Shown one piece after another: positions 1-16,833 of a stretch of 64,000 nt of DNA. The notes beneath the pieces are model-generated. The model saw nothing but the letters and a program-made list of their open reading frames with translations, was not told the DNA's origin and searched no databases. The position numbers were made by a program, and so were the translations under genes. Source of the stretch: Odiellus spinosus (lineage: Eukaryota; Arthropoda; Arachnida; Opiliones; Phalangiidae). How positions within the stretch are numbered: position 1 is the stretch's first letter; the number at the start of each line of letters is the position of its first letter. The stretch is from positions 434,001-498,000 of the forward strand of contig OY987227.1 in NCBI GenBank assembly GCA_963920705.1, in the 5' to 3' direction.

Positions 1-415
1 TTCGTATGTGATTTTGAATTTTTGGTCGATATCCCCGGATAGGGTGAATGTGATCCCGGAGCGGTCGGACATGGCGTAGAAGAACTGTTCGTCTTGTTCG
101 TCCACAAATAGTTCGCACGATGAGCCGTCTGTAGTTTTTGTAACCTTGAGAAGGATCCCGTAATTTTCCATAAGCTTTTCCCAGGCGTTAAGAGGAATAG
201 AGAATCCGACCAGTGAGTCGACTCGGCGAATAAATAATTCGAACCGATCGTAGTTTATCAGTCCCGAGAGGGAATCTCGAGTTAAGTTTTTTAGGCGATT
301 CAATTTTGCGATGTTTTTGACGGCGAGGTGGACCGTCGATAATTCCTCGATCCCGGGTTCCGCTCGACGATGGACCGTCGGAAATTCCGCGTTTTTGGCT
401 TCGATTCGAGAGCAT
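1..415 (-). pseudogene. Polinton terminal gene of unknown function (copy A, runs off the window)
   Basis: Counterpart of the 270-residue gene at 59,547-60,359 in copy B. The N-terminus is basic and polar (repeated DGP and RDRGI motifs, then a KHRKIES stretch) and the rest is predicted globular. The reading continues beyond base 1. It is the outermost gene on this side, next to the terminal repeat. I do not recognise the family, but its C-terminal half resembles the gene at 14,978-15,442. The copy in this window is broken. Confidence 0.6.
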
Positions 416-519
416 ATTTTGACCGTGTTAGCTGTTTTGATCGTAGAAGGGAAATGATTTGAAGATTTTTCGTACCGAGGGTCTTAGGATATTGTAGTGG
501 GGGTGGGAATTTAGCCCCC

Positions 520-756
520 TTATTTCATGTTTGGGCGAGTTTTAGCAAGTCTGTTAGAGAGGAGGGGGGTTAGCAATAGTTCCAGTTGCGTCGTACGATA
601 CCGAAATATCATAGAGTTTAATACAGGTTGTAACAATACCTCAGTTTTTTTAATCCGGTACCGAAATCTTATGGCGTCGCGTATATCGTAATTTGTCTGG
701 TCTTCGGAACTTACGTAATAAGTCGTTACAAAATCGTCAAAACGAACCTTGCCCAT
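520..756 (-). CDS. Small Polinton protein with an internal duplication (78 aa)
   Basis: Unknown function. The protein contains two near-tandem copies of a short module, FRYRIKKTEVLLQPVL and FRYRTTQLELLLTPLL, about residues 30-66, suggesting two similar helices or strands. It starts in the last codons of the BIR gene upstream and overlaps it slightly, so the two are probably read from one transcript. Copy B has the same ORF at 59,207-59,437 with few changes, which supports a real gene. No membrane segment or known motif is visible. Confidence 0.6.
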   Translation of the reverse strand: MGKVRFDDFVTTYYVSSEDQTNYDIRDAIRFRYRIKKTEVLLQPVLNSMIFRYRTTQLELLLTPLLSNRLAKTRPNMK

Positions 757-1132
757 TGTTTATTATTTTCTTTACGTGATATGCCAATACGAGTTTTTCT
801 ACTTCCCTCCTGGAAGCGCGGACCGTGATAAAAGGGGGATTGTCCGGTATCGACTTCTCTTTGACGACGGGAGGTTTCAAGTGGTAGCTCTCGTGGTTTT
901 CGGCCCGTCCATCAATTATACAGAAGGGCTTCTGATATTTCCCCGTCTCGTCAGCCGCTCTACCTTCACCGTCCAGGGTGATGCTGCGAATAAATGCGCA
1001 GTGAGCAAATTTTTCTTTGTGCTCAAATAAAGGATCGTCGGTGGTCTTCCAATTTTGAAGCCTCCCGTGGCACGCGAAGCACTCGACAGATAGATAGAAA
1101 AACCCGGCTTTAGCCATTAACAACTGCGACAC
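737..1132 (-). CDS. BIR-domain (inhibitor-of-apoptosis-like) protein of Polinton copy A
   Basis: The N-terminal half is a baculovirus IAP repeat. The zinc ligands follow C-x2-C-x16-H-x6-C (Cys18, Cys21, His38, Cys45 in this reading) with the typical AGFFY, LQNW and DDPLFEH surroundings. BIR domains bind caspases or IAP-binding-motif peptides, and in baculovirus and host IAPs they block apoptosis. No RING finger is visible; the remaining 80 or so residues are basic and unassigned. The start could be Met1 or Met6, since MAKAGFF begins the domain. It sits between the 157-aa and 78-aa genes, outside the core morphogenesis block, as an accessory gene would. Copy B carries the same gene. Capture from a host IAP gene is an inference. 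Confidence 0.8.
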   Translation of the reverse strand: MSQLLMAKAGFFYLSVECFACHGRLQNWKTTDDPLFEHKEKFAHCAFIRSITLDGEGRAADETGKYQKPFCIIDGRAENHESYHLKPPVVKEKSIPDNPPFITVRASRREVEKLVLAYHVKKIINNGQGSF

Positions 1133-1412
1133 GCGTATGTGGGGATAGTCAAAGAACGAACCATATCTGAGACGGGTGTCTTATATGGCTAACGACGTCT
1201 GAATGAATCAAACGAATGATAGGCTTATAGTATTTAAAGTATTTTTCTAGTAAATAAAGGGGTGATGAATTAATTTCAAAACGTAAAAAAGTGACGACTG
1301 GTAGGCTTATAGCATTTAGGATCGGCTTATGATATAATAAAAGGGAGAATGAAGTAGTTTCAAAAATTTGATGACAATAAAAAAACACAATAGAGTAATA
1401 ATTAAAAAAAAA
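1133..1412. repeat. AT-rich intergenic stretch with two diverged direct repeats
   Basis: It lies between the BIR gene and the 157-aa gene. Two roughly 85-bp units, each beginning 'taggcttatagyattta' and ending near 'tttcaaaa', follow each other at about 1,220-1,375. Copy B has the same pair. The short ORFs here are AT-rich shadows. The stretch probably carries the 3' end of the 157-aa gene and the upstream region of the BIR gene. Confidence 0.5.
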
Positions 1413-1886
1413 CTAAAAATGCAGGTATTCAGCCAAAAACTTGGCGTTAGCCCATGCGCGCTCCGTCGCGCAGGGCCGGATGGCTGTGGTGGACCCGTGG
1501 GGGTGTCCGCACCGAAGGGTAACGTCAACGACGGTCGGTCGCGGGCAAAGCACGTCGTTTAGGTTCCCCACGGGCCCGGTGGTCCAGAGGGATTGGGAGG
1601 TGCGGGTGGCGCGCTCCAAAAGCGCCTCGATCTGGTCACAGGGCACGTCACCCCCTTCGAACGACAGCCCGTGGATGCGGGCGGTGACGTGCCTGTTGGT
1701 CCTGGCGATGGAGGGTGGGAGGTACTTGGCCTCATATGGGGCCTGGAAGGTCCATGAGTTTAGGACGGGTACCCTGGCGACGGTGGCGACGGCCAGCTCC
1801 TTAATTATCAGATCCGGGCCATGTCCAAAACAGCGGACCCTGTTCCGCCCGGACAACATTTCCATTTCGACGATGGCGGCTGACAT
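1413..1886 (-). CDS. Unknown Polinton protein, 157 aa
   Basis: It has a TATA box at 1,951-1,958, a TCA initiator-like site about 30 bp downstream and the ATG some 40 bp further on. The coding sequence is clearly richer in G+C than its neighbours. The product has several conserved-looking His/Cys/Trp positions but no motif I can name. Copy B has the same gene with the same promoter at 58,017-58,088. The neighbours are the protease upstream and the BIR gene downstream. Because it has its own strong promoter it may be transcribed separately from the virion genes. Its base composition suggests later acquisition, but that is only an inference. Confidence 0.6.
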   Translation of the reverse strand: MSAAIVEMEMLSGRNRVRCFGHGPDLIIKELAVATVARVPVLNSWTFQAPYEAKYLPPSIARTNRHVTARIHGLSFEGGDVPCDQIEALLERATRTSQSLWTTGPVGNLNDVLCPRPTVVDVTLRCGHPHGSTTAIRPCATERAWANAKFLAEYLHF

Positions 1887-1925
1887 TTTTTTTCTGAGGT
1901 GCGTTGAGAGAACTTGAGAAACTTG

Positions 1926-1958
1926 TGATTTTTAGATCGGAAAGTTCGGGTTTATATA
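1926..1958 (-). promoter_or_regulatory. TATA box and initiator of the 157-aa gene
   Basis: TATATAAA (minus strand, 1,951-1,958) followed about 30 bp later by TCACA (around 1,928). The same pair and spacing occur in copy B at 58,017-58,049, upstream of the same start codon. Confidence 0.6.
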
Positions 1959-2038
1959 CCCTTTAAAAAAGCCCTCCATTCGTTACGGGGACGCGATAGA
2001 GAATTCCCACGATATGGGAGGTCCTATCATTCCTGAGG

Positions 2039-2482
2039 TTAGAACCCTCGTCTTTTGAAGAGGGTTGAAATAAGTTTATCATTGTGTTCGGCATTACGAG
2101 TAAACTTCTTTATAAATGAGGGCGTTCCCTTTTTCATTGATCGGTGTAGTAGATATATGACGCAGTATTTTCCGCACACGGAGCTTGTGAATGACTGGAA
2201 TCTACGTTTGTTGTATGTCCGGGATATAGAGTTTCGAGTGATAAACCACGCAATGGGGGGTATAAAATTCGGCCCAAACGCTAGTGAATCAAAATAATAG
2301 GAGTGGGCTCGCTTGTCAAAATAAATGGCCACCCAATGCGTACCTGGTTGGGCGCTATTATCGAAATTCACGATATACGAAGCCGGATAACTAACAATCT
2401 GGGCCGGTAGTGTGTCACTTGAATAAACTCCCTTAAAACTAGGGATGCTTCTCAAACAATGTCTTATCTGGGGGCCGTTCAT
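2039..2482 (-). CDS. Adenain-like cysteine protease (Polinton PRO)
   Basis: Virion maturation protease of the adenovirus/Polinton (C5/C48-like) fold. The expected catalytic pattern is visible: His49 in GTHWVAIYFD, Asp65 in YYFDS, Gln96 in RFQSF and nucleophile Cys103 in SSVCGKYC. The length of 147 residues is short but usual for Polinton proteases. It lies immediately downstream of the major capsid gene, with a short gap, in the same direction, as part of the morphogenesis cluster. In related viruses this enzyme cleaves capsid and core precursors during assembly. Copy B has the same gene from 57,507. Confidence 0.88.
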   Translation of the reverse strand: MNGPQIRHCLRSIPSFKGVYSSDTLPAQIVSYPASYIVNFDNSAQPGTHWVAIYFDKRAHSYYFDSLAFGPNFIPPIAWFITRNSISRTYNKRRFQSFTSSVCGKYCVIYLLHRSMKKGTPSFIKKFTRNAEHNDKLISTLFKRRGF

Positions 2483-2485
2483 GGT

Positions 2486-3752
2486 TATACTGTGATAGTG
2501 ACAGCACGGTTCTTATCAATTTGTATCAAAGCCTGAAATTCCGAAAAGACGACGCAGCTTAAGGTGTTCGCTGTCGCTTGATCAAAACCCATGCTGCGTC
2601 ACATTCCAATGGCTTGACTCACTCGCGCTTTAGTCCATAGAAATATCGAACGAATAGATCGCTGTACCTTCCCCGTATCTTCGAGGGAGATATTCAGCCC
2701 CCTGTCGCAATAATGGGTATCCGCGCCTGAGAACAGCGTATAGTATTCGCGGGCGAAAAGCTTTTTGGCGAAATTGGGTTTTAAAGGCCTGGCGGGGATT
2801 TGATCCGAGTTTACAAATAATGAAATATAGTTTAATCCAAAATTCGCAAAATTGAAAGGGTTGGTCTCCAGATCACCCGTTTGTGATTTATGATTAACCA
2901 AAGCAACGATAACACGCTCGGGCAGAACGCCGAGATAAAGATTTTCAATAGACGTGATCAGGAGATGGGGCGAAATTGTAAATATCTTTGCTTCCGTTCG
3001 GGTGTAAGGGTATTGGGCGGGCTTCGCTGTTAAAGCTCGTTCGTGGGCTAATAAAATTTTTGGCGCCACTTGACTTTAGGAACATAAAGAACGGCTTCTA
3101 GAATGTGTGATTTATAACCACCGTTCCCGGTGGGCTTTTTCCCTAACAAACAAAAACTAGGTTTGCTTTTATGCAATTTCAGTTTAAGGGGCACCCCGTT
3201 GAGAAGATATTTGGAGATATTGAAAAAGTCTAAGTAGAGTGCCCTGTACATTTCAAATTCTTTTGATTTCGCGCTAGCTTTACGTCGTTGTACATGGCCT
3301 TTGTTATCTTTCGTGGAATCCATGTGACCGGGGGTATCTTTAAAATACATGGCGCCTTGCAAGTGCGAATAACTAGCATCGCCCCCGTACGTCAATAAAC
3401 GCTGAAAGTAGCGAGTTGTATCCGTAATGATTTGCCGAGGGCGTTACTAGACAATCGCCTACGTAAATGTCAATGCGTTCAAATTGCGAATGCAGAAAAT
3501 TATTAATAGGTCCAACGTTATCACTATCAACAAGGTCAGACCCGTCATTGTTTGTAATTTTATTTCGGGTGTATAGCATAATAAGTGACGTATCGATGTA
3601 CTCGTCATTGTTAGCTGAATTTTCAAATTCTATTGGTTAATCCCCTTTGAGGGAAGTTAATGGCTGATACGTTACAGTTTTAATGCGCTCAATCGAAGTT
3701 TGAATTGGGGGCACCGTAAAAAGGTCTAACGCTGAATTAACGACTTCGCCCA
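2486..3752 (-). pseudogene. Polinton major capsid protein (double jelly-roll), broken
   Basis: The gene encodes the hexon-like major capsid protein. Family signatures are spread over the region: DLFTVPP and QTSIE near the N-terminus, VGPINNFLHSQF and CLVTPSAN, then YGGDASYSH, KDTPGHMD, YLLNGVPLKL, ILLAHERAL, YPYTRTEAK, NPFNFANFGLNY and YYTLFSGA. These match the conserved blocks of Polinton MCPs (the family that includes nematode F54H12.2-like proteins). The start lies just after the pVI-like gene and the end just before the protease. This copy is broken, with about three breaks. Confidence 0.88.
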
Positions 3753-3755
3753 TTT

Positions 3756-4220
3756 TTATCTTGAAAATATGTCGCGAACCGTCCGGAATGCGAGCTGACG
3801 CTTAACTGATCTGGATCGTTGTTTATCTACGCTCTTTATAGCTTTTTTCCGCTTTTTTGAGACTTTTTTAGCAGTTTTTCTTTTTTTCCGTGGTTTTCCG
3901 GAGCCATACTGTTTTCGGACTTCGTCTAATGTTTCGGTACCGCGCCGCTTAACGGCCTTTTGCAGGTTTTGCCCACTCATGACGTCATTAAAAACGAGCT
4001 TACCAGTTCCCAATAGTTTTTTACCGACAAATTTTGCGCCGTTATAAAGGATAGGCGCGATATAGCGCCCAAAGCGGGCAAAAATATTACCGATTCCGTG
4101 TCCCCGCTGGTAAGCTCGCCCAATATACACGGGTCCTACGCCATTACCCGCTTGGCCCTGGGCCTGAGCCAAGTAATATTGGGTATAACTACACCTTTCT
4201 AAGTTAGCCGTCCGCCGCAT
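3756..4220 (-). CDS. Small basic virion-type protein (adenovirus pVI/pX-like candidate)
   Basis: 154 residues. A glycine-rich central segment (GHGIGNIFARFGRYIAPIL, then GAKFVGKKLL) predicts an amphipathic or membrane-active helix. A conserved-looking FNDVMSGQNLQ/GTETLDEV stretch follows and a strongly basic tail (KPRKKRKTAKK and onward) closes it. Small proteins of this build lie next to the capsid genes in Polintons and adintoviruses and are compared with adenovirus pVI or core proteins. It sits between penton and major capsid genes, 3 bases from the latter. Assignment rests on layout and composition. The copy B homologue is at 55,752-56,210. Confidence 0.65.
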   Translation of the reverse strand: MRRTANLERCSYTQYYLAQAQGQAGNGVGPVYIGRAYQRGHGIGNIFARFGRYIAPILYNGAKFVGKKLLGTGKLVFNDVMSGQNLQKAVKRRGTETLDEVRKQYGSGKPRKKRKTAKKVSKKRKKAIKSVDKQRSRSVKRQLAFRTVRDIFSR

Positions 4221-4990
4221 TGTCTCAAGTGTACTACGCAGGACAGTGTCCCGTACTCAAATGGCGCGAGCTCGCCGAGATGATCTCTTATATGTACGGT
4301 AATGGTGTCAAAGTAGCTTTTCCCTATTGGTAAATAATAGGGGGAAACAAAGGTCTTTGCTACGGAATCCCCGTAATTTGTGTTTTCAACTGGAATAACC
4401 CTTAAAAGAGGGACTTAAGAATCACCCACTATTTCATAGTCTACAATATCTGTATAAATGTACAATTGAGAAGGGATATGGCAGTCAATACGCGCTTGTT
4501 TTTCGGCCCGCCCTTTTACATATTCGGAATCCTCGTAGCCCATGATATCGGCGATATCGCGAGGGATGGCCAAAACAGGTTCAATCGAACCAGCCGCTTT
4601 AGTCTTTAGGTTGATATAACCAGTCGTAGCGTCATGGAGAAAGCACGCTTGATTCTTAAGACAGATTTCAACGTCATTAATGACGCCTAATAAATGGTCA
4701 ATCGACTGATAATGACCGGGGGGCACGTCGATCATACCGAGTTTCGTAACGTTACCCCGGGGAGGTTGAGATGTCGAGCGTCGTGTGACGTTTACTTCAG
4801 CAGCGGTGTCCTTTTTCACGTTGAAAAAACTAGACGTATATATTAGTTCAACCAAAGCGCATTCCCACGACCCCTTGAGGGTAATTGGATTTGGTAGTTT
4901 CGTGACGTATGAAGCCATTGTGTTGTCGGGGAAAATATCCATTGACGAATCACTTGGGAGCGTTAGGTAAAGGTCTCACATTATCGCTAC
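4215..4990 (-). pseudogene. Polinton minor capsid (penton-type, single jelly-roll), broken
   Basis: Blocks typical of the Polinton penton protein are seen: DIFPDNTMASYVTKLP near the start, WECALVELIY, GHYQSIDHLL, PRDIADIMGY, LYIYTDIV and IVGDS, and a C-terminal HIRDHLGELAPFEYG stretch. In Polintons this protein forms the pentameric vertices. It follows the integrase and precedes the pVI-like gene, in the expected order. The copy is broken, with about one or two breaks. Copy B has the same gene at about 54,990-55,745. Confidence 0.85.
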
Positions 4991-5080
4991 TAACCCAACA
5001 ATTCTGGTCTTTAGGTAGGCCAATAAATGAAACAAAATATTCCAATTTCCCTTTCCGTTTCCTTTTCTTCAGAATTTTGT

Positions 5081-6031
5081 CTATACTGTACAGGTCGGTA
5101 CCTTGGTTCTAATGAGTTGAAAAGCGTAAAAGAGCCCCGTCATATCTTGACCATTGTAGTCTTGAAACTTATACAAATGTGGCGTCTTGTTTTCTAGTAC
5201 TTCGACCGAGAAATTGGCTTCGAAGCCTTTAGCGAAAACCGAACGAAGTTTACTAATTCTGACATGGTCACCAGTTTTAAATTTAGCGGGCTTGACTTTA
5301 AGTTTTTTAGCAACCCCGTAGATATTTCGATAAACTTGTAAGATGTTTCCGCTATGGAGTTGATCAGGCGCCATTTTAATCGTTGAATGCTTGGCCCCGT
5401 TATACGCGGAGATTAAAGTTTGAAGAATATCAATGTAACGCCGGGTATTGTTGTACGTTAAATAACGGAACATTCTCCCTTTGATAGTGCGATTAAGCCT
5501 TTCAATGAAGGGGGCGTGGTGCGGTTCCGATACCATAGCGGTAAATTTAACGTTGCTTTTCTTTAGCAAGGCTTGCACTTTAGTGTTTAAAAATTCAGTC
5601 CCACTATCACTATAGATGGCGCGCGGGACGCTACCGGCGAAAATCTCCTTCAGACCTCGAACGACCTCATCTCCGCTCTTCCTCTTTAAAGGGATACTGT
5701 AGGCTTTTCGCGAGAAGAAATCGATACCCATTAGCAAATACTTATACGAATCATTGTATTTTGCTAAAGACTGCATGTCAGCCAGGTCAATTTCAAACCT
5801 ATCGCCAATATTGGTGACGGGAATTTTTCTTCGCTTAAATTTCTTTCTAGCCGTGACGTGAAGCGTATAAGCTTCGGACCCTTCCAGAAATTCTTTCACT
5901 TTCTCCCTCGAAATACCCTTATCTTTAACGGCCTGGTATATTGATTCGATACTCGAAAATGACGCCGGATTACTTTCATCAAAATAAATTTCTTCTAGGG
6001 TGTTGATTTGGTCGTTTTGAACGTTAGCCAT
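5081..6031 (-). CDS. Polinton integrase (retroviral-type rve core)
   Basis: 316 residues, complete and open. The catalytic triad is Asp82 (FEIDLADM), Asp142 (IYSDSGTEF) and Glu177 (PFIERLNRTIKGR), a D,D-34-E spacing within the range for this family. The C-terminal part (FKTGDHVRISKLR, then GFEANFSVEV) is the SH3/chromo-like domain usual for Polinton integrases. I see no convincing N-terminal HHCC zinc finger. The enzyme inserts the linear element, giving the 6-bp target duplication seen around copy B. Its first codons overlap the end of the upstream 247-aa gene in another frame. Copy B has no counterpart in this window. Confidence 0.93.
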   Translation of the reverse strand: MANVQNDQINTLEEIYFDESNPASFSSIESIYQAVKDKGISREKVKEFLEGSEAYTLHVTARKKFKRRKIPVTNIGDRFEIDLADMQSLAKYNDSYKYLLMGIDFFSRKAYSIPLKRKSGDEVVRGLKEIFAGSVPRAIYSDSGTEFLNTKVQALLKKSNVKFTAMVSEPHHAPFIERLNRTIKGRMFRYLTYNNTRRYIDILQTLISAYNGAKHSTIKMAPDQLHSGNILQVYRNIYGVAKKLKVKPAKFKTGDHVRISKLRSVFAKGFEANFSVEVLENKTPHLYKFQDYNGQDMTGLFYAFQLIRTKVPTCTV

Positions 6032-6738
6032 TCTTGGGAGTTGGGGCTTTTATGTGGTAGCCCGAGCCGTTTTCTAATTGTGTGTACAGTTTTGCTGGTA
6101 ATTTTCGTGGGCGGCTTTTTCGCTTTGCGTAATCTTAATTTTAACGGCGTCGAACGGGTCGGTGTTGCGAGGGGTGACGGGCGTACGGGGGTGGTAACGA
6201 CGGAGTGTTGCGGTAAAAACGTCTTAACAAAAGGCGCGAATTCGACCCAGCCTACGGGTTGAGTTCCGAGGCTTTTGCCCTCACTAAGTTTAATCGTATG
6301 AAAAATTAATTCACTGATATCAGAATCTTTAATGGCGTGACCGTCGATGACGATGTTACCGTTTATTGTAGACCACGTTACTCTGTTTTCGCTTTCTGTC
6401 AAATGATCGAAAATTTTACGGGCGAGCCCCCTATATTTGAGCGGAAATAAATTGAGCCAGCGTTCATAGGGTAATTTACTAATTTCTTTCTTGGTTATAT
6501 TTTGGGCTCTTTGTAAAATTTGACTGTATTGTATCCATTTGGTCCTCGCGTCTAGTTCACGATCATCTAATATATTTCGCATTTCAGACTCGAGGGTATT
6601 TAAAACAGCTTTTTCTTTCGGCACGGCCCCTCCGGCCAGCGAGGCGGAATTTTCTGAAGGGCTGCCCACGCTAACATTCTCGGCATTTAGGGGATTCCGA
6701 GGTATAGGAACAAGGTGCATTTTAACGAATTGTTTCAT
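5995..6738 (-). CDS. Conserved Polinton protein of unknown function (247 aa)
   Basis: Resembles a protein type common in Polintons and adintoviruses next to ATPase or integrase. A start rich in LVPIPRNP is followed by a helical block (ILDDRELDARTKWIQYSQIL), a middle block with TWSTINGNIVIDGHAIKDSDI and GWVEFAPFV, and a Pro/Thr/Lys-rich basic tail. No enzyme motif is visible, and the role is unknown. It ends inside the start of the integrase gene, so the two are probably co-transcribed. The ORF is open. Confidence 0.65.
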   Translation of the reverse strand: MKQFVKMHLVPIPRNPLNAENVSVGSPSENSASLAGGAVPKEKAVLNTLESEMRNILDDRELDARTKWIQYSQILQRAQNITKKEISKLPYERWLNLFPLKYRGLARKIFDHLTESENRVTWSTINGNIVIDGHAIKDSDISELIFHTIKLSEGKSLGTQPVGWVEFAPFVKTFLPQHSVVTTPVRPSPLATPTRSTPLKLRLRKAKKPPTKITSKTVHTIRKRLGLPHKSPNSQEWLTFKTTKSTP

Positions 6739-6841
6739 TGTCCTACGAGAATCCCAAGGATATTGGCGGCGAGCGGTAAAAGTAACGAGAAAAAGCCGCT
6801 ACCTTTCTGGTTAATTAATAGATGTTTCTTTTTACGCCAAT

Positions 6842-7093
6842 TTATACGTCGGTCTCCAATCTGACGTAGATTTTTCTTATGTGGGCCAGTTGTATGGTAT
6901 TTTTAGGACTTAAAAGATTACCTCTTAAGGCGTTTAAAGCTACTTCGCTCAGGGCCTCGATCAATTCTTTGGGAGCAGATTTTAATATACTAAGCCTTTG
7001 GCTACGCTTTACACGACCTAAGGCTGATATAAGGTCGGCGTTACGTTTCGCAAGACTCGAGCGAGTTTTCGTTGTTCGCGCTTTGGGGGCCAT
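6842..7093 (-). CDS. Small conserved Polinton protein downstream of the ATPase (83 aa)
   Basis: I choose the ATG at 7,091-7,093 because the upstream extension overlaps the ATPase end in another frame and looks non-coding. The product begins with a basic MAPKARTTK stretch and continues with a helical core: RNADLISALGRVKRSQRLSILKS, ELIEALSEVALNALRGN. This pattern (R-N-x-L-I-x-A-L ... L-I-x-A-L-x-E-x-A-L-N-x-L-x-G) recurs in Polintons, often next to the ATPase; its function is not established. It may be a small virion or DNA-binding protein. The ORF is open. Confidence 0.65.
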   Translation of the reverse strand: MAPKARTTKTRSSLAKRNADLISALGRVKRSQRLSILKSAPKELIEALSEVALNALRGNLLSPKNTIQLAHIRKIYVRLETDV

Positions 7094-7131
7094 ACCACTA
7101 ATGATGGGATTACCTAGGGGACTGAAGAGTT

Positions 7132-7770
7132 TTATTGTTTTCTGGGGGTGTATACTGTTAGAGTTTCGTTGGGGAAAATATTCGTTCTTAATCTCCACTC
7201 TTCGGGGATTGTTTGCGAAAGGTCGTATAAGATATACGTATGAGGTTGGGACGTAGCATCTAAGTAGCTATCCAGAATGAATTTTGAGTTACTAGGACAT
7301 AATTGTCGCGCCAGAATATTGATTTGATTTAAGTCTCGTGTTTGCTTGAAATGTATTATATAAGTCGCGTTTAACGAGATTTCTCGGATACTTTTATTAA
7401 AAAGATTTTGAACAATGAAAAGTACGGACAAAGACTTATGATGTGAATATTTAGTGAAAATATCCGCAATCAACGCGCCTTTATTTTGACTCATAAGATC
7501 ATCGATAACTAACAAGACATTTCGGGAACCATCATAAATTGATACGTCGGGTAACCCTTCTAAAAAATTTACACATAATTTCTTGATATCGTCGTAGATT
7601 GGTTGCCAAACAGAGTTATACCAATCAACTTGAGCTATGGGGGGATCAAACATTGAAGCCCGCTCTTTTATTATCCTCTGACACAACATAGTTTTCCCAC
7701 TGCCGGAGCTACCGACCACCAGGGTACCGGAAGGATGATTGAATCGTAACATGACAACTCCAAAACTCAA
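7132..7770 (-). CDS. Polinton genome-packaging ATPase (FtsK/HerA, A32-like)
   Basis: 212 residues, open. Walker A is GSSGSGKT at residues 20-27, and Walker B is VLLVIDD at about 85-91, followed by LMSQN. FIVQNLF carries the conserved polar residue of the sensor strand. In Polintons and related viruses this ATPase pumps genomic DNA into the capsid. It is the first gene of the minus-strand block, so transcription of the whole cluster may begin just upstream, in the AT-rich DNA beyond 7,770. Met7 is an alternative start. Confidence 0.92.
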   Translation of the reverse strand: MSFGVVMLRFNHPSGTLVVGSSGSGKTMLCQRIIKERASMFDPPIAQVDWYNSVWQPIYDDIKKLCVNFLEGLPDVSIYDGSRNVLLVIDDLMSQNKGALIADIFTKYSHHKSLSVLFIVQNLFNKSIREISLNATYIIHFKQTRDLNQINILARQLCPSNSKFILDSYLDATSQPHTYILYDLSQTIPEEWRLRTNIFPNETLTVYTPRKQ

Positions 7771-8628
7771 ACTCTAATGATTCTAATTTCGAAAAGACAT
7801 TTAATTTTATAGGCATTATATCGCGATTCGCGGTGACAGTCCACACCCCCTTCGCGCGCGCGGTTTTTCGCGGTCGCGTTTCGCGGCTGTTGTTTACGCG
7901 GTAATTAAGCCTATACTAATAATTATTATTTAAACATTAAATAATGTTCGTTTTTCGGAGGCTTGCTATATGACTTTGTAAAACTTTATATTTTCGGTGG
8001 GAAAATCTCGGTCTATAGAAATAAGACAACATCTTTCTTTCCTAAAAATGGGAGGAACCTTTCTCACGATAAATTGGCAATCGAAAATAGCGATCATAAA
8101 AAGACGTATAGGTAGTTGAACCCCCAAGTCAAAAAAAGGGTAGGAACAACCCGTGGTTCAGAAGCCACGAAGGACCAACCTCGGTGGGCCTACAAACTAG
8201 GTGGTCCCTACCCGCGGTAAAGAAAACCAAGCTTCAATAGTGGGAAGATAATTGGTCCTTGCTGAATGATGAATGGGCATCGGTGAAATTTTGGCCAGTT
8301 ATTTCACACGGGGGTAAAGTTTGTAAGCGTTCGCTAACTAAGGTGTGGTAGTTCGTTTGGGGGCGTTAGGTGAAGATTCTTGAACCGTAGCTGACCATTG
8401 GAGGGTCGCGATGGTCCGGGGACAAGGGGGTAAAATTATCTCGCGGGTTTCCTATACAATTTTTTAGGATAAAAACGCCTAAATTTTTAACCAAGACTAC
8501 CATTCTGCTCCCGTTGGTCAAACCCTAACAAACAGACCTAAACCTTAAAAAAGATGGCTGCCCAACTTCCCGATTTGACGTAAGTGGAAATCTTTGAGAA
8601 AATCTCGGTACTTTAAGTTGGATATATT
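7771..8628. other. Non-coding stretch upstream of the ATPase
   Basis: No coding region found. A short CG-rich stretch (about 7,850-7,905, with repeated TTTCGCGG motifs) stands out in otherwise AT-rich DNA and could belong to a promoter or origin-like region. At 8,136-8,215 imperfect inverted segments built on GGGTAGG/CCTACCC could fold. I cannot assign a function. Confidence 0.4.
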
Positions 8629-8775
8629 TTTAGAAAATAACTTGGTTTAATTTCGGGACATTTAAGAAATAACTTGGTTTAATTTCGGCACATTTAAGAA
8701 ATAACTTTGATTAATTTCGGGACATTTTAGAAATAACTTTGGTTAATTTCGGGACATTTTAGATATAACTTTGAT
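8629..8775. repeat. Tandem repeat, ~32-bp unit
   Basis: Four to five imperfect copies of 'tttaagaaataacttggttt' plus 'aatttcgggaca'. The same unit reappears at 13,090-13,125, so the DNA between may be inserted material. Confidence 0.75.
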
Positions 8776-9741
8776 TATACAAAAACGTTGTTTTGCTTCG
8801 CACTTCAAAAAAGTGCATTTATAGGTAAGAATTTCAAACCCGTGAAGGGACAGAAATTATAAATTCACAGTGAAAGAAATATGAAAGTCACAGTCTAAGA
8901 AATCATAAATCTATAATTATTATACAAAAACGTTGTTTTGCTTCGCACTTCAAAAAAGTGCATTTAAAGGTAAGAATTTCAAACCCGTGAAGGGACAGAA
9001 ATTATAAATTCACAGTGAAAGAAATATGAAAGTCACAGTCTAAGAAATCATAAAGCTATAATTATAATAATTAATATGAATAAAAAATTTACAAAAAAAT
9101 GACGTATAAATTCGGCCTATCGAAACTTTTACTTATGTATATTTAATGATTAGAAACTTTATAAAGAGGCGAATGTTTCCTTTTACTAACTGAAAACTGC
9201 AACCATCGCCATTCGATATCACCACTCTAGAGTCTAGGAGAAGGGAAAAAGTAAGAGTCAACTAAACTTTAGTAGCTGTCAGATGACGATAACACGCGAG
9301 TAAAGGTTTGTTAGTGTATTCCCCGTGGTGAAACATGTTTAAAAATCAAAAGTCTCATCTAAACAGCAACCCCTCTTAATATAATATAATTCTCCACCCT
9401 AACAACTAAACATTTTAAAAACCCGGGCAGGAACTATTTGGTATTATGCTATTCTACCTTTCCACGCATAGATGGCTTTTAGTTACCCTTACCAAGAGTG
9501 AATTCTACAACAGAATGATTTCTGCATAATTAAAAGTTTCGATAGGCCGAATTTATACGTCATTTTTTTGTAAATTTTTTATTCATATTAATTATTATAA
9601 TTATAGCTTTATGATTTCTTAGACTGTGACTTTCATATTTCTTTCACTGTGAATTTATAATTTCTGTCCCTTCACGGGTTTGAAATTCTTACCTTTAAAT
9701 GCACTTTTTTGAAGTGCGAAGCAAAACAACGTTTTTGTATA
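8776..9741. mobile_element. Foldback-type non-autonomous DNA element with 211-bp inverted repeats
   Basis: The segment 8,921-9,131 is repeated in inverted orientation at 9,531-9,741 with almost no differences; about 400 bp of non-coding DNA lies between. The outer 145 bp of the left arm are also present as an extra direct copy at 8,776-8,920. The ends read TATACAAAAACG..., and TA flanks both sides, compatible with a Tc1/mariner-type MITE, but the superfamily is not certain. It is nested in the interior of Polinton copy A. Confidence 0.8.
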
Positions 9742-11950
9742 ATTTGTGTTTGCTTTTGGAAAAATTAAACACTTGTAAATCAATTAACCCATTTTTTTTT
9801 ATTTAGTGGTAGGAATTAAAATTGCAAATTTACAAGTTTAAATTGAAATGATTTAATATATATGATTATTTTATATTGTACAAACTTTAAAATCGGTTAT
9901 TGTTGTTCTAAATTATGGGGCCCTATAACTGTGGTTTAAGATTAAATATCCTATGGTGCACGCAACATCTTTTTTAATCTCGATCGCAGCACGTTATTCG
10001 ATCTTTTTAAAAGTAAATTGATTAAGTTCTTGGTTTTGCCATATTCAAAAATATTCCCTCGAGCTCCCGCAGAACGAACACGTCAATACTCTCAGCATAA
10101 AACTATAGTTCTTAAATTTCATTTCACACAGTTTAATTCAGAAGTGCTTTCGATTTAGATGAATATTAACATCGCTTAAGCCGTTGTTTTCATTTTGATG
10201 GTTTATACCGTTTAATTTTCATTTTTCACTTAGATTTAAAATGAAACCATTCAGTTTATTTGCCGGTTAATGAAAATTATTAACAACACTTAATAAATAC
10301 TGGTCTGCCATGGTGCAACTCATGGGCTATTAGATTAATAGTTTTGACCTAATTAATTGGTACCCTTTTAAAATAGCTTTGAACTCACTCGTTTTCCTGT
10401 GAGGACGCGTTACACGACGCGCACAAAAAATGGTGGACGGACGCGCACAATTAAAGATTGAAATGTATACAGAATACTGGTCGCTGACGTCTCGTCATCG
10501 CGTGATTTCGAATCATCTGATTGCCCGGTTAGATTTTATTTTGTACATGGCGATCAAGCCTTTTTCTTACTCCGTAGATTAAAACTCAATTTAAAAATTA
10601 TGACCTCTCGCTTTTAAGTCTCCAGTCCAACCTCAGGATACAGTAAGTAGGAAAATATATAATTGGTATCATGTCGCGGCATACGCGGGCATGGCAACTA
10701 AAAGGAATTTAAAGTTTTCTTAAAATTGAGTACACATGGGACCGATTTATAAAAAAAGGAAGTCCATGTGCAAGAAAAACCATTACAACTCTAACCTCCG
10801 ACCTCGCGCTAGCTAGATACGCGTATCGGAAGACCCAAAAAAAAACACCCTACGACTGTAATTGTTCTGGGGGGAGTCTCTGCCGTTTACTAATAAAAGT
10901 ATTTACGAATTAAAGATTAGGAGTCAAAGATTTTAAAGGTTATATAAGAAAATAGAAATAAAGTCCGAATTTGCCGTTACATATAATATGATGATTCTTT
11001 CTTTGTTTCCATCCACTACGCTTAGTTAGAATAAGAACGACGAAAGCGGCACCTCGTAACAAATCCGCGCATAACGAAGTTATACCTCAATCTCGCCATG
11101 GGACTGGAAGATTCGCTTCAATTCCGAACTCGTCAATTATAAGAGAGAAGGGTGATACCAAGGGATTACTAGCTAAAGGGATATTGGCTAATTCGAGTGA
11201 TAAAATATACTAGACTGACGTGACCTTACTAGCGTTGTTTTAATCTGCTAACTTAAAGATAACGAAAAGTGATTACCATGAACATCCACTAACATACTAA
11301 AATATCTACTCGAGAATTAACGAGACGATCGAGACCAGAATAAACATTAAACTTTATTATTACAAGTATAATTCTCATAAATTCAAAGAGCCCTGCAAAA
11401 AAAAAGCAAACGAAGTCGTAAAAACAACATCGCGTTAAAGAACATATTTGCAAAAAACTATGCCAATTCCTCCGCACTGTTCCTAAAGAAACGTAAGTCT
11501 TCCTTTACTCTGCTGTCCATGAGATGTACAGGATGATGGCCCCAGGCATCTATCCACTACTTGTCCTCTACTTGGCCTATCCTAATCCTTGAAGGCTAGG
11601 ACATTATAGGCGTCACCACGGAACTTCCACCTCTGCAGCAGGCTAAAGACGTAAACTTTTTTTTTTACACGATGTAGAACGCATGAATGACAGAGAGAGA
11701 ATGTGTTCTATCCATAGGCGCAAATGACTTTTATCTCTCGAAAAAATACGTCGACGTCCCTTAAAAAACGGATTTGGCCTACTGGCGATAGGCCAACTGA
11801 AAAACGTATTTACATCCCATTGTAAGAATTGGACGACGAGTCCGAAAGTTCGTTATGTCGAACACGTGATAGTACCGAAAGTTCGAATACTCAAAAGGGG
11901 CTGACTTCGCGTCGACTGCAACTAAATCAGACTGAGACTGTTGCACTCTA
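9742..11950. other. AT-rich non-coding stretch inside Polinton copy A
   Basis: I see no gene, tRNA or clear repeat. ORFs are short and AT-rich (for example 62 codons at 11,289-11,477) without protein-like composition. Confidence 0.5.
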
Positions 11951-12077
11951 CTAACGTAACCTTACCTATAATATTATAAGAGGAATGGGTTAGAGCAAGT
12001 GTTTAACTAGTTGGAGGGATGACGTAGTTCGAGTGATTAACTAACGTAACCTTACCTAAAATATTACAAGAAGGGAA
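11951..12077. repeat. Short direct repeat pair
   Basis: 'ctaacgtaaccttacctata' with a following 'atatta.aagargg' occurs at 11,951-11,987 and again at 12,042-12,077, about 91 bp apart. Confidence 0.55.
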
Positions 12078-12154
12078 AGGAAACAAAATGTCCTTTCGAG
12101 GTTGTGAACTATCGATAAAGATTCCACTTGAGATTATGTACATGAAGATTACGG

Positions 12155-12255
12155 TCTATCAAGATTGTGTCGCATCGACCTTATGTTCTGTCGAGATTGC
12201 GTCCCATCGAGATTATATCCCATCGTTATTGTGTCCTATCGCGCCTGTGTCCTAT
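12155..12255. repeat. Degenerate 16-bp minisatellite
   Basis: Six to seven imperfect copies of 'tcgagattgcgtccca'. The 74-codon ORF across it is a by-product of the repeat. Confidence 0.65.
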
Positions 12256-12689
12256 TTTGTTCTTATATCCGTATCCTTTCTAGACTCCTTTAAATTCTGC
12301 AGCATCATTTAAATTTCCCGCCAACTTTTATAACTAAATCAATTTATTGTACGTCAGTCTCAGAGTCCATTTTCTAAGACATTTCAAAATCTCACCGCTA
12401 TATACCATTTGGGCTAATGTATAATACCCAAGTTTATGTACCCTACGGCTTATAATCATTGATAAAAAAAATTCAATACGCACTATAAACGTTAAAAACA
12501 CTGTTTTGCATTAGACTCAATACGTAGAATTCTAGGCATCGTCCTATATCTTTTAAACCAAAACATATATCGTTTGTATCTCTCGCGTTCTGCTTTATTA
12601 TTTATATTTAATTAGACACGAGTTTTTTATTCAACTTCATACACCAACTTTATCTTTTTATCCGTCTTCCTATCCAACGTAATCAAAGC

Positions 12690-12950
12690 TACTGTTATTC
12701 AGTCTTAGTATTCAACATAATAAAAGTATAATAAAAATATAATAGAACACCCTTGTAAATCTAACACATTTCTCTCTTTCTAATGCAAACTCCCAATGAA
12801 ACGCCGTCTTTCACGGTGTTTCAACCTTATCTACAGCTTTTGTTATCTCAGTCTTAGTATTCATCCGAAACGTATAGAAAAATATAGAGTACCCCCACGA
12901 GCCTAACACATTTTTCTCTCTCGAATGCAAACTCTCAATGAAACGGACTA
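12690..12950. repeat. Diverged direct duplication, ~145-bp period
   Basis: The block 'cagtcttagtattca ... ctaacacattt.tctct ... aatgcaaactc.caatgaaacg' occurs at about 12,690-12,812 and again at 12,835-12,950. Confidence 0.65.
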
Positions 12951-13064
12951 GCGGTCGGACGAAGAAGAAGGAGAAAACCTCAGTTATCATTGACAAAAAA
13001 GATTCCACCTCATAAGACTAATCTCCATAGACTTTTCTAATGAAATTTTGAGATACCTATAAAT

Positions 13065-13088
13065 AAAACAGGCCAGCTGGCCTGTTTT
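13065..13088. repeat. Perfect 24-bp palindrome
   Basis: AAAACAGG CCAGCTGG CCTGTTTT is perfectly self-complementary. It sits directly before the return of the 'aatttcgggaca' tandem unit and may mark an insertion boundary. Confidence 0.7.
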
Positions 13089-13319
13089 TAATTAATTTCG
13101 GGACATTTTAGAAATAACTTTTTGAGTTTTCAACCCTATTTTACAGTTAACTTTGTTTAATTGCGGGTCGTTTTTAATAAACAACTGCCCGGATATATTT
13201 AGAAATATAGTTTTAGAAATTGATTACACTCTAGGTTAAGAGGTCTAAAACATATTCCAACTTGAAGTACCGAGATTTTAAAACCTTATATTTTGGAGGT
13301 ATTTAATTTTTTTTTATAT

Positions 13320-14180
13320 AATAGCCGTGTAAAGCTGGAGGCCCCTGCCTCAACCCCGGGAAGCTCGGCGTACTCGCCGCGCCGGTCTCCGGACCGACGT
13401 TGGATGGCGAGGTCACCTAGGGGGACCCCCCGAGCCGCTCGACACCCCGCCAGAGCTCGGCACGCTCTTTTCGGAGCTGGGGCGCCCGAAGCCCGGATTG
13501 CCGGGGTTCGACGCGTGCCACGTCGTCCGTCTCCGCCGCCATCACCGTTTTGGGAGGAAGGGAATCCCGCAGTGACCCCCGAGCCGCTTCAGAGGGAGGA
13601 ACCGCTCCTCCGGAGAGGGACACCATCGCCGCCACCCGCTGCCCACCGTCGCCATTTCGCGGAGGGGTACGCGGTCGTTAACGCCCCTGACCGAACAGGA
13701 TACCCCTGGCTCGCCCCTCCGCACACCCCCCACCCGGACGCCCACTCAGTCGTGTAAGTTTCACCAGCTTCTCAAAGTCAAATAGTAGTAATTTCACATT
13801 TATAATTTATATATATATCCTCGCCCACTTCCTCCATCTTGCCGCCCGCTACCAGATACGGTACGGTGAGTACCCGGCCGCTGCCATGACCCAGATTCTG
13901 GCGGTTGTGCGGAACAACAAGGTTCCGGCGGCCGCCTTGTACTCCTATGACGTTTGGGGTGGCCGGTACGTGACTAACGAACTCTTAATCAACCCTTATT
14001 GTAACTTACTAAATTATTATTATTATTATAAAAAGGGTACTCGCCGAACTGGACCAACTTGGCCATTGGCGGGCGGCCACCGCCGAGATCGAGACCTTCA
14101 TCGAGAAGGAGAGGGTCATAATCTCGGGGGCCCAAGACATCGTGAGGCGCGCAACGTGCCCCCCCCCCCATATATTAAAC
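13320..14180 (+). other. GC-rich island with exon-like open stretches
   Basis: The base composition changes abruptly from AT-rich to strongly GC-rich at about 13,330 and back at about 14,170. Three open stretches are visible: about 13,324-13,753, followed by GTAAGT; about 13,815-13,964, followed by GTACGT; and about 14,035-14,160, preceded by an AT-rich stretch ending in AG. The short AT-rich separators with GT and AG edges look like introns. The predicted residues (many Pro, Ala, Arg; later DQLGHWRAATAEIETFIEKE-like helix) match nothing I know. It could be a captured cellular or viral gene inside the Polinton. Which strand and frame of the first stretch is used is uncertain. Confidence 0.4.
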
Positions 14181-14342
14181 ACTGTTTAGGTGGGAAATGG
14201 TCCCTGCCGCTGTTTTTTTTTTTTATTTTTTTTTTGTACATAAGATAACTAAATGTGTTTTGAATAGTAATTTTCGTGAATTTGTTTTATTTACTTTTTC
14301 AGGCCTACCTACACATGGCCTGACCGCATACAAGTAAATATT

Positions 14343-14753
14343 ATTTTAGTTTAATTGTTAGGATATTATTCTATTTAGTTTTGGGGTTTATTTAGATGTC
14401 ATGGTTTCAGGTTATAAAGTTGCACTGTACGCCAAAGTTTCAACGTTCACGAATGGGGGTAGCTTACAGGTCCCCTGTCGACACCTATCGTGAAAATAAG
14501 CTACTAGAGTTTATTTAGTCAGTGTTATTATTTTTTACACCACCACATAATAATAAATTTTTAGTGTCTATTTAAGGTACTTTAATTGCTAGGTTATTAT
14601 TATTATTCCATTTAGTTTGGCATTTATTACTTAAATGTACTGGTTTCAAATTATACGGCAGCTAGGTGGCGCCAATGTTTCAACGTTCACGAATTGTGTT
14701 AGCTTACGGGTTGTCCCCTATCGTGAAAATCAGCTACTCGGGTTTATTCAAGG
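14343..14753. repeat. Two diverged direct repeats, ~235-bp period
   Basis: The unit contains 'gtttcaacgttcacgaat', then a 'tagcttac.ggt' and 'cctatcgtgaaaatmagctact' block. Copies lie at about 14,343-14,523 and 14,578-14,753, roughly three-quarters identical by eye. They lie just past the 3' end of the gene at 14,978-15,442. Confidence 0.75.
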
Positions 14754-14977
14754 GACCGCGATAGCGTTCAATGTTATGGGTCCTTCGTTTGTAATACAAT
14801 TTCCTTAAATCTATTTTGGGTTGTTTTTTACCCAAGTACTTGCTAATGAACTATACGCTATTTAGAGATTATACGGATTCATATTTGCTCAAGTAGCACT
14901 GTGACGCTAATGGAGGGTATAGGCTTAACTTCGAAAAATAGTAAAAAGCAATTTCAGAGATGATTTTTAGATTTTAT

Positions 14978-15442
14978 TTAAAAACAAATTAGGCAACACG
15001 CTCTAAACATTTTTTTAATTTGGACCAATTGCCCACTAATTATCGAAAACAAATTGTAGGCCCTAAAGTCGCTTTTCAGGCCTTTATTTTTTAGATTTTC
15101 CTCAAAGGTGGAAATAATCGTGAAAGGGCTCACGAAGCAAGTGTAATATTGATAGACGGCATCGAACTTTTCCGTTTGGTCGTCCTCGAAGAATAGGGAC
15201 ATGGTATTTCGGTCATTGAACGACTGGTCCCTAATTTGAATTAAGTACTCGGCGATTGTATGGTACATCTCCTCGAATACCGTCCTATGATTATTCAGGT
15301 GTGCCAGGTGGGCCGTAACACTGTCGCAAACCCGGTGTAACTCGGTAGCCTCTGCAGACGTCAGTGTGACGTCTTTCTCCGCTACGGAATAGCTGGTTAG
15401 TCGCGGGATATCGCTCATGGCCGTTGCTTTCAGAGTGTTCAC
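14978..15442 (-). CDS. Unknown Polinton protein (154 aa), related to the terminal gene
   Basis: I do not recognise a named family. The C-terminal half can be aligned by eye with the C-terminal half of the terminal gene (59,547-60,359): KFDAVYQYYT against KFDEIINYIT, TFEENLKNKGLKSDFRAYNLFSI against KFNERLAARECTFSLRDDNLFTL, and a closing helix ending in ACC/SCA. So the element carries two diverged members of one family. The protein is acidic to neutral and mostly helical, with no signal peptide. The gene is isolated, with about 450 bp to a TATA box upstream at 15,891-15,897. Confidence 0.6.
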   Translation of the reverse strand: MNTLKATAMSDIPRLTSYSVAEKDVTLTSAEATELHRVCDSVTAHLAHLNNHRTVFEEMYHTIAEYLIQIRDQSFNDRNTMSLFFEDDQTEKFDAVYQYYTCFVSPFTIISTFEENLKNKGLKSDFRAYNLFSIISGQLVQIKKMFRACCLICF

Positions 15443-15860
15443 TCAGTTCTCGCTAATGGTGACTACGAAAGGTGTGTCCTCGCGACCTTTAGCTATATGC
15501 TAAAGGTCCAAGACGGAGGGCCAAGGTCGCCCATTCCGCAGGCGTGATACTGAATCCCGACAGAGAATCTTTCGAAATTATTCGAATCTCAATGTCGAAG
15601 GTCTAATTGGCAAACCCAAACGTTAAGTAACGCTGTTCGCTAAGTTGAATCCTATGATTTAGCTTCCTACCACTTGCAAAAGCTGGAATTTAGCGCCGGT
15701 AGCCGGTAGCCGGATCGACAACGACAACTGAAAAAAAGAGAGAGGGCCCCGTGTAAATTCAAAGTCTAAAAAACTTTACCAAGTCCGCGGCAGAAAATAG
15801 CATAAGGTATTTACGGGGTAGCTTGGTTGTTGGTGGGTTCATCTTGGAATCTTGGGAAGC

Positions 15861-15897
15861 AACTAATAACTCGACCCAGCACGGTCCGCTATTTATA
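15861..15897 (-). promoter_or_regulatory. Candidate TATA box and initiator
   Basis: TATAAAT on the minus strand (15,891-15,897) with TTAGTT about 30 bp downstream (15,861-15,866). A short ORF with its ATG about 25 bases beyond the initiator, then a pyrimidine-rich stretch ending in CAG (about 15,730-15,745), lie between it and the 154-aa gene, so a spliced leader is possible. Confidence 0.45.
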
Positions 15898-15992
15898 CCC
15901 TTAAAATCGAATGGGGTCCCCCGAATTTAGACACCCCTAAAAACTCCGGAATTTTAAATTTGAACAAAAGAAAATAAGCTTCACAAGAACAT

Positions 15993-16181
15993 TTATTTTC
16001 TAAGGCTGTCAGTCCCATTCAAGGCAGACCGCATGCTGATTTTTATGTTGAATTTCTGAAAACATAGATTTATCGTTTCTAAAGCGGCCAATACTAAAAT
16101 TACACACAAAACCATAAGAATGTTCTTGGGTTTCTTCTGTAAGAAACTTATCAGCGAACGGGTTCCGACCTGTCCTTCCAT
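15993..16181 (-). CDS. Small single-pass membrane protein candidate (62 aa)
   Basis: I use the second ATG (16,179-16,181). A basic segment (FLQKKPKN) precedes a clear hydrophobic span, ILMVLCVILVLAALETI, about residues 20-37, followed by a polar basic tail. This is the layout of a small membrane protein with positive charges before the span. It lies between the 154-aa gene and the divergent polymerase-side genes. Nothing else supports it, and copy B does not preserve this part. Confidence 0.4.
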   Translation of the reverse strand: MEGQVGTRSLISFLQKKPKNILMVLCVILVLAALETINLCFQKFNIKISMRSALNGTDSLRK

Positions 16182-16475
16182 TGTAAGGCCCACGAGTTTA
16201 CTATCAGGTCAATCCATTTACGTGTCAATATAAGTACCACTATTCAACTCATTTCTAGGTGCGGCGAATCTTACGCCCTTATGAGTGACATAAATTGACC
16301 CCGTCATGACCTCCGTATCTATTATTCATATATTCAACAAAAAGCTCTCACGCCCTTGTGTTGGGGGCCTGCTGTGACTTGTTTGAACCTGCTCCAGCCA
16401 GGGTTTCCCACGCTCCTGTAGGGGGCGTTTGGGCCCATTGTACTCGTCTACGCGAGCCTTGAAGGCACGAACATT

Positions 16476-16617
16476 CCTGAGAACTCTTTTGTTGCAACAA
16501 CCTGACAGGCCTACTTTACCCCCTACATCGAATTTTTCATTCTAGGGAGGGAACTAGAAAAACACATTCCTAAGATTCCTTTGTTGAAACAACATGACAG
16601 GTCGACTTTAAGCCTAC
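16476..16617. promoter_or_regulatory. Repeated palindromic motif upstream of the 16,834 gene
   Basis: 'tttgttgcaacaacctgaca' and 'tttgttgaaacaacatgaca' lie about 91 bp apart, each inside a longer similar block. The first contains the perfect palindrome TTGTTGCAACAA. The position, 150-300 bp upstream of a TATA box, suggests regulatory sites. Confidence 0.4.
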
Positions 16618-16806: not shown

Positions 16807-16833
16807 CAAACTTTAACATCTACACGGCTCATC

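What the first reader, a model, noticed from the sequence alone, without database searches (positions are those of the whole stretch)
737..1132. A Polinton that carries a BIR (inhibitor-of-apoptosis) gene
Both Polinton copies contain a BIR domain with the full C-x2-C-x16-H-x6-C zinc pattern, so the gene belonged to their ancestor and is not a late insertion. BIR proteins block caspases in baculoviruses and hosts. An anti-apoptotic accessory gene fits the idea that Polintons lived as viruses that needed to keep an infected cell alive. I cannot tell from here whether BIR-bearing Polintons are already described.
Basis: partly seen in the sequence, partly recalled or inferred. Interest (0 to 1): 0.85.

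Follow-up and report, generated by a model that had tools for sequence, protein, structure and literature searches.

The report
Swappable anti-death gene in arthropod Polintons
In one arthropod genome, many virus-like jumping elements called Polintons carry a small gene of a family known for blocking cell suicide, and that gene appears to have moved between otherwise different Polintons, which fits the idea that these elements lived as viruses.

Summary
The BIR gene is real (copy 1: PF00653, 51.9 bits, E 1.2e-13) and belongs to a Polinton. Two details of the finding are wrong. Copy 2 does not keep the full zinc pattern: a 16-nt deletion removes the last cysteine and shifts the frame. And the two copies are poor independent witnesses: they share lesions, flank and target, so they look like one dead insertion duplicated.

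The stronger evidence is genome-wide. In the window's own genome (an arthropod, probably a chelicerate), 65 of 123 merged integrase loci have a BIR within 12 kb (random shifts: mean 8.69, max 15), and 50 of 123 have it on the same strand 4.2-5.5 kb away (mean 0.37, max 3). Forty BIR loci were read; they fall into seven sequence families in at least three gene orders. dN/dS is 0.09-0.20 for the six of 12 pairs with usable dS. The gene moves between backbones: elements with 35% identical capsid-side proteins share a 94% identical BIR, while elements 100% identical there carry BIRs 77% alike.

Most likely it is an accessory anti-apoptotic gene; the function is inferred. No paper seen here reports it, but the adintovirus founding paper is not held.

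The parts
737..1180 (-). copy 1 BIR gene, open frame of 147 aa; BIR domain about 989-1168; no in-frame start ahead of the domain; 15-nt in-frame deletion relative to copy 2
   Evidence: PF00653 E 1.2e-13; alignment of copies; frame
58799..59226 (+). copy 2 BIR gene, split over two frames (58799-59062 and 58972-59226) by a 16-nt deletion that removes the last zinc cysteine
   Evidence: PF00653 E 1e-14, profile 1-61
1..20709 (.). Polinton copy 1, runs off the window start; right terminal inverted repeat about 20274-20709
51692..60746 (.). Polinton copy 2, lacks the integrase-ATPase stretch; terminal inverted repeats 51692-52137 and 60355-60746 (74%)
51686..51691 (+). 6-bp target site duplication ATAATG, left
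60747..60752 (+). 6-bp target site duplication ATAATG, right
1..483 (-). ORF 'w_down' downstream of BIR (cut by the window start), unknown function; copy 2 at 59535-60359 (+)
   Evidence: beside BIR in the fetched relatives of the window type and, at 42%, in D-type L040; no family above cut-off
1413..1931 (-). ORF upstream of BIR, unknown function, found in the same place in fetched loci of families A, C and E
2039..2512 (-). adenain-like cysteine protease; copy 2 at 57477-57896 (+)
   Evidence: PF00770 E 3e-05; 1.3e-05
2599..3443 (-). broken ORFs 2599-3075 and 3048-3443; a single frame of 441-458 aa in L010-L013, L025, L026; capsid candidate by position only
   Evidence: no significant PDB match for the 456-aa frame of L025
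4415..4975 (-). capsid-side ORF (w_4415) used as backbone marker; function not identified
5081..6049 (-). retrovirus-like integrase, copy 1 only
   Evidence: rve PF00665 E 1.1e-07, 32.5 bits against cut-off 32.6; relatives
7132..7773 (-). P-loop packaging-type ATPase, copy 1 only
   Evidence: weak Pfam P-loop matches below cut-off; conserved beside integrase in fetched B loci
16741..20090 (+). broken type B DNA polymerase of copy 1; copy 2 at 52321-55002 (-)
   Evidence: PF03175 E 1.7e-09 and 3.9e-11; ORFs

Best explanation
The window holds one dead, duplicated Polinton whose lineage carries an accessory gene for a small protein: one BIR domain plus a tail of roughly 55-90 residues, and no RING in the proteins scanned. 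Shown: the gene belongs to Polintons of several lineages in this arthropod genome; it lies next to the terminal repeats at one end of the element, or between PolB and ATPase in other lineages; its protein was kept while its DNA changed; and its history differs from that of the backbone around it, so it has been exchanged between Polintons. Inferred: it descends from host IAP BIR domains, perhaps by more than one capture. Inferred and untested: the protein binds caspases, or host proteins with an IAP-binding motif, in infected cells and delays cell death while the element replicates and packages, as viral IAPs do.
For: Pfam BIR in both window copies and in 7 of 7 Polinton BIR proteins. 187 merged BIR loci (host genes included); 65 of 123 merged integrase loci have one within 12 kb (200 within-contig random shifts: mean 8.69, max 15); 50 of 123 have it on the same strand 4.2-5.5 kb away (random mean 0.37, max 3). 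Shared neighbours in families A, C, E and the w_down neighbour in D-type L040. dN/dS 0.128, 0.088, 0.177, 0.158, 0.196, 0.102 for six of 12 pairs. Exchange: L015 and L018 align only over about 650 of 9900 bp, the BIR and its edges (91.5%), with about 40% outside; capsid-side protein 35% and BIR 94%, against 100% and 77% for L015/L022; on that same backbone pair, DNA identity of 94-100% dips to 78-83% over the first half of the BIR. BIR-less relative L052.
Against: No functional data. The acidic residue of the peptide groove of XIAP BIR3 is matched by the invariant Asp55 of alignment A2, but the place of its key Trp is Lys in families A-D, His in E, Leu in F and Tyr in G (letters; the XIAP positions are recalled, from no call), so some of these BIRs may not bind IAP-binding motifs. 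75 of 150 PF00653 rows had neither a listed integrase nor a listed PolB row within 20 kb; the one of these with wide flanks fetched (L051) did have PolB and ATPase beside the BIR, but the rest are unread. 23 of 33 integrase loci of the 45-48% group have no listed BIR within 12 kb, so the gene is dispensable or often lost. Three of the six usable dN/dS pairs have dS above 1.7, where it is poorly estimated. One genome only, and searches scored only the best candidates (124 of 1253; 150 of 337; 150 of 243).
Confidence: 0.6

Rival explanations
1. The BIR acts in immune signalling rather than caspase block: a single BIR without RING competes with the host's IAP2 for its partners and damps an IMD-like antiviral response.
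For: Family E BIR groups with the BIR2 of host IAP2-type proteins (88/71, unstarred); no RING in the 9 Polinton BIR genes given to Pfam (copy 1, copy 2 as two pieces, 7 relatives). The role of IAP2 in insect IMD signalling is recalled.
Against: Weak tree support from 65 columns; whether this host has an IMD pathway was not tested.
Confidence: 0.2
2. The BIR has another job (virion part or chromosome tether, survivin-like) that does not concern cell death.
For: The Trp of the peptide groove is replaced (letters, position recalled); families A-D share a conserved C-terminal tail.
Against: Variable place in the element and a history apart from the backbone suit an accessory gene better than a structural one; some relatives lack it.
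Confidence: 0.12
3. The BIR is a host exon or retrogene that happens to lie in a Polinton (nested host sequence).
For: The host has its own three-BIR and survivin-like genes.
Against: Fixed spacing in 50 of 123 integrase loci against 0.37 by chance; same neighbours across backbones with 52% integrase identity; in the tree the window-type BIRs group with other Polinton BIRs, not host BIRs.
Confidence: 0.03
4. The apparent exchange of BIRs between backbones is assembly error or nesting of one element in another, not recombination between Polintons.
For: Only one assembly. Nesting does occur: L027, which I first took for a swapped cassette, is better read as a truncated B element abutting a shortened C element, because the repeats beyond its BIR are closest to C-type repeats (98.4% to L014 and L025, against 95.9% to L022).
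Against: L015 and L016 lie on different contigs and agree at 99.96% over 7.1 kb, so the L015 type is not a one-off join. The L015-L018 match covers just the BIR gene and close flanks, with no terminal repeats inside it, and within one backbone type the first half of the BIR alone differs.
Confidence: 0.1

Closest known systems
Polinton/Maverick elements and Adintoviridae
   Same: PolB, retrovirus-like integrase, adenain-like protease, P-loop ATPase, terminal inverted repeats, 6-bp target duplication. Buck et al. [quoted passage not shown]
   Different: that passage names no gene type; here it is a BIR gene in an arthropod. Barreat and Katzourakis 2021 (PMC8097293, passages) mark an accessory-gene region in a figure legend, but the terms I looked for there showed no BIR or IAP
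NS3-like zinc-finger proteins of bidnaviruses and granuloviruses (Krupovic and Koonin 2014, PMC4061559, passages)
   Same: proposed there as a family of apoptosis inhibitors that travels between arthropod viruses, in a lineage whose PolB came from a Polinton
   Different: the authors call them unrelated to IAP proteins; the BIR here is an IAP-type domain
Viral IAPs of large arthropod DNA viruses (baculoviruses and others; recalled)
   Same: BIR domain protein in a DNA virus-like genome
   Different: single BIR, no RING found, in a Polinton with many copies in the host genome
Host IAP2/XIAP-type gene of the same genome (L009) and of chelicerates
   Same: BIR domain family; 34-41% identity of the window BIR to the three host BIRs
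   Different: host gene has three BIRs in one frame; many of its relatives add a RING (PF13920)
NAIP (PDB 8fvu)
   Same: best PDB sequence match of window-type BIR L029, E 1.1e-29
   Different: long protein with several BIRs; distant

Membership tests
[quoted passage not shown]
   PF03175 in both copies; protein priming itself not tested
Polinton/Maverick | retrovirus-like integrase | tested here: met
   rve E 1.1e-07, 0.1 bit under the curated cut-off; relative L015 45.4 bits, over it
Polinton/Maverick | adenain-like protease | tested here: met
   PF00770 over cut-off
Polinton/Maverick | packaging ATPase | tested here: inconclusive
   P-loop matches all below cut-off
Polinton/Maverick | double jelly-roll capsid protein | tested here: inconclusive
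   no significant Pfam, PHROGs or PDB match to the long ORF of relatives; no fold made of it
Polinton/Maverick | terminal inverted repeats and 6-bp target duplication | tested here: met
   copy 2
BIR domain | PF00653 over gathering score | tested here: met
BIR domain | C-C-H-C zinc ligands | tested here: met
   copy 1 yes; not met in copy 2, which lost the last Cys; invariant in the 9 relatives of A2, but lost in some others, such as L031
Baculovirus-type IAP | RING finger after the BIRs (definition recalled) | tested here: not met
   no RING in the 9 Polinton BIR genes scanned
Inhibitor of apoptosis (function) | inhibits caspases or cell death | not testable with these tools
   needs biochemistry
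Adintoviridae | adenovirus-like virion proteins | not tested
   no reference adintovirus was compared

The most novel reading that the evidence does not exclude
Polintons of this chelicerate captured BIR domains from host IAPs more than once (family E from the IAP2 BIR2) and pass them between deeply different Polinton lineages as a swappable anti-death cassette, which requires different Polintons to meet and recombine in one cell, as co-infecting viruses do.
Probability: 0.33. Interest if true: 0.82.

Novelty: new variant of a known kind. Interest (0 to 1): 0.65.

Why it matters
Whether Polintons live as viruses or only as transposons is still open. A conserved gene of a known anti-death family that is exchanged between elements is what a virus would use and a purely intracellular transposon would hardly need, and it is testable: the protein either does or does not block arthropod cell death. 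A BIR history that differs from that of the backbone also points to recombination between Polinton lineages within a host.

Tried and rejected
Viral contigs: four single-protein scans (families A, E, F, G) gave no relative; an alignment query was not usable. Protein database: none with the window protein; 5 proteins with the profile, two of them named (Ornithodoros turicata IAP-like entries); none could be tied to a Polinton, no genomic context being given. Fold of the window BIR as a single sequence was useless (mean pLDDT 35.6), so no fold search was run. PHROGs gave nothing for 7 proteins. ORF 'w_down' of L025 has no PDB or Pfam match. A single Polinton origin of the BIR was neither shown nor rejected (AU p 0.478; A-D with E 0.34; A-D with F and G 0.33). 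Nested host exon rejected (see rivals). In one search, six of 12 pairs are not used: four have saturated dS (the ratio printed as 0.0 is meaningless) and two recent pairs have few changes (0.576 and 0.851). The random-shift control used the largest hit coordinate per contig as its length. Only 40 BIR loci (42 rows) were read as sequence, and family labels A-G are mine, by eye.

Papers: ten searches, listings with starts of abstracts, showed no report of a BIR or IAP gene in a Polinton, Maverick or adintovirus. Passages were read in PMC11071296, PMC8363768, PMC8097293, PMC10675110, PMC8905726, PMC11067908 and PMC4061559; other listed papers were not opened. Starrett et al. 2021, the adintovirus paper, is not held, so a prior mention there cannot be excluded.

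Full report
What is in the window. A BIR domain is encoded on the minus strand at about 989-1168 (frame 737-1180; PF00653, E 1.2e-13), within a Polinton that also has an adenain-like protease, an integrase, a P-loop ATPase and a broken type B DNA polymerase. A second copy lies inverted at 51692-60746, with terminal inverted repeats (74%) and a 6-bp duplication ATAATG. It lacks the integrase-ATPase stretch.

Corrections to the finding. Copy 2's BIR lost the last zinc cysteine through a 16-nt deletion that also shifts the frame; copy 1 has a 15-nt in-frame deletion relative to it. Neither has an in-frame start ahead of the domain. Both polymerases break at the same residues (frames ending at PRVASR and opening at RN-K/N-FVPVHK). 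The outer flank of copy 1 is nearly the exact reverse complement of that of copy 2, target included. The simplest reading is one broken insertion duplicated; over 1-5006 the copies differ by 126 mismatches and 118 gap columns in 5071 aligned columns. They are therefore weak witnesses for ancestry.

Genome survey. The window lies in a 443-Mb assembly. Its three-BIR host IAP scores best against a scorpion protein (43% over 95% of the query), and the first six named hits are chelicerates (scorpion, horseshoe crabs, spiders). TTAGG arrays are abundant (7381 forward and 2915 reverse matches, overlapping ones counted, control 0). So the host is an arthropod and probably a chelicerate. PF00653 gave 150 rows (150 of 337 candidates scored); 144 of the 150 have no stop inside the match, and at least 5 rows are host genes, judged by eye. 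The window BIR gave 147 rows (150 of 243 candidates scored). They merge to 187 loci. The window integrase gave 130 rows (124 of 1253 candidates scored), merged to 123 loci. 65 of 123 have a BIR within 12 kb, 50 of 123 on the same strand 4.2-5.5 kb away and 5 of 123 on the opposite strand 3.3-3.6 kb away; 200 random shifts gave means of 8.69 for the first and 0.37 for the second. By integrase identity to the window the shares are 30 of 57 (79% or more), 1 of 4 (68-76%), 13 of 17 (56-62%), 11 of 12 (50-52%) and 10 of 33 (45-48%). Since only the best candidates were scored, these may be undercounts. Seen from the BIR side, 75 of 150 rows had a listed integrase or PolB row within 20 kb and 75 had neither; of the latter, L051 was read and has PolB and ATPase beside the BIR.

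Families and gene order. I call the BIR families A to G (labels mine, by eye). In fetched loci of A (window type), C and E the order is capsid-side genes, protease, ORF 1413, BIR; A and C continue with ORF w_down. D has the same integrase spacing, and L040 continues into a w_down relative (42%, E 1.8e-27). B elements (integrase 43-48% to the window; with a chromodomain in L015) have BIR beside the ATPase on the other strand. In L049, L050 and L051 (families F and G) PolB, BIR and ATPase follow one another on one strand. Invariant residues in nine representatives include the four zinc ligands.

Selection. Nei-Gojobori dN/dS is 0.088-0.196 for six of 12 pairs, so the protein was kept while the DNA diverged; three of the six have dS above 1.7 and are rough. 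Four further pairs were saturated and two recent pairs had few changes (0.576, 0.851).

Exchange between backbones. L015 (B backbone) and L018 (window-like backbone) align only over about 650 of 9900 bp, the BIR gene and its edges, at 91.5%; identity is 98% over about 300 bp in the first part of the gene and about 40% outside, which is the level of unrelated sequence. Capsid-side and BIR protein identities disagree: L015/L018 35% and 94%; L015/L022 100% and 77%; L018/L025 75% and 48%; L021/L022 86% and 98%. L052, a B-type locus, has no BIR match and aligns on both sides of the slot in L015, where two 255-bp direct repeats (83.5% alike) flank the BIR; L052 has one, 94.5% like the right one and 82.4% like the left. 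Two loci (C5:4488114 and C9:1330049) have a B-type integrase (45-46%) yet a window-type BIR (92% and 88%) at the window-type spacing; the stretch between was not read. L027, which joins B-type genes (99.5% to L022) to a C-type BIR segment (99.6% to L025), is not counted: the repeats on its far side are C-type (98.4%), so it may be a shortened C element beside a truncated B element. Repeats near the element ends are shared by several lineages and may help recombination; that is inference.

Origin. In a 36-row tree of 65 columns, A-D are one clade (87/80), E sits with host BIR2 (88/71) and F with G apart (89/37); none of the three is starred, and a single Polinton clade is not rejected (AU p 0.478). 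More than one capture is possible, not shown.

Mechanism. The most likely role, from the family, is to hold off cell death in infected cells by binding caspases or IAP-binding-motif proteins. Steps shown: domain, conservation, element membership, exchange. Steps inferred: expression, binding, effect on cell death. The groove comparison to XIAP is recalled and ambiguous.

Novelty. Ten searches of the paper library showed no BIR or IAP gene reported in Polintons. Buck et al. [quoted passage not shown] The adintovirus founding paper is not held. I rate this a new variant of a known kind: an accessory anti-death gene in a Polinton, here BIR-type, widespread in one genome and exchanged between lineages.

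Noticed in passing
window 20710-51691 and 60753-64000: Long stretches of a roughly 196-bp tandem repeat; both Polinton copies border it at the same point of the unit.
   Followed up: partly
L015 4312-4566 and 5761-6015; same in L016: BIR is flanked by two 255-bp direct repeats, 83.5% alike; BIR-less L052 has a single one.
   Followed up: yes
G000 C5:4488114 and C9:1330049: B-type integrase with a window-type BIR at window-type spacing: possible further chimeras.
   Followed up: partly
L027 (G000 C280): Truncated B-type element abutting a C-type end that holds BIR and w_down between inverted C-type repeats.
   Followed up: partly
G000 C1, C10, C13, C17, C109 (family E): Six E elements on five contigs with the same BIR score and nearly the same spacing, suggesting recent spread.
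   Followed up: partly
window 1-483 and 59535-60359: Conserved ORF beside BIR with no known family; its relatives in L025-L027 weakly match (24%) ORF 14978-15442 of the window, perhaps a second copy in the element.
   Followed up: partly
G000 genome-wide: TTAGG arrays at many internal places of contig C1.
   Followed up: no
G000 C3:16519380 and C5:14347682: Two survivin-like BIR exons, by eye.
   Followed up: no
PMC8905726 (passages): The hard clam genome is reported with both an expanded BIR gene family and 1.7-1.9% Maverick; whether some of those BIR genes ride on Mavericks would be worth a look.
   Followed up: no
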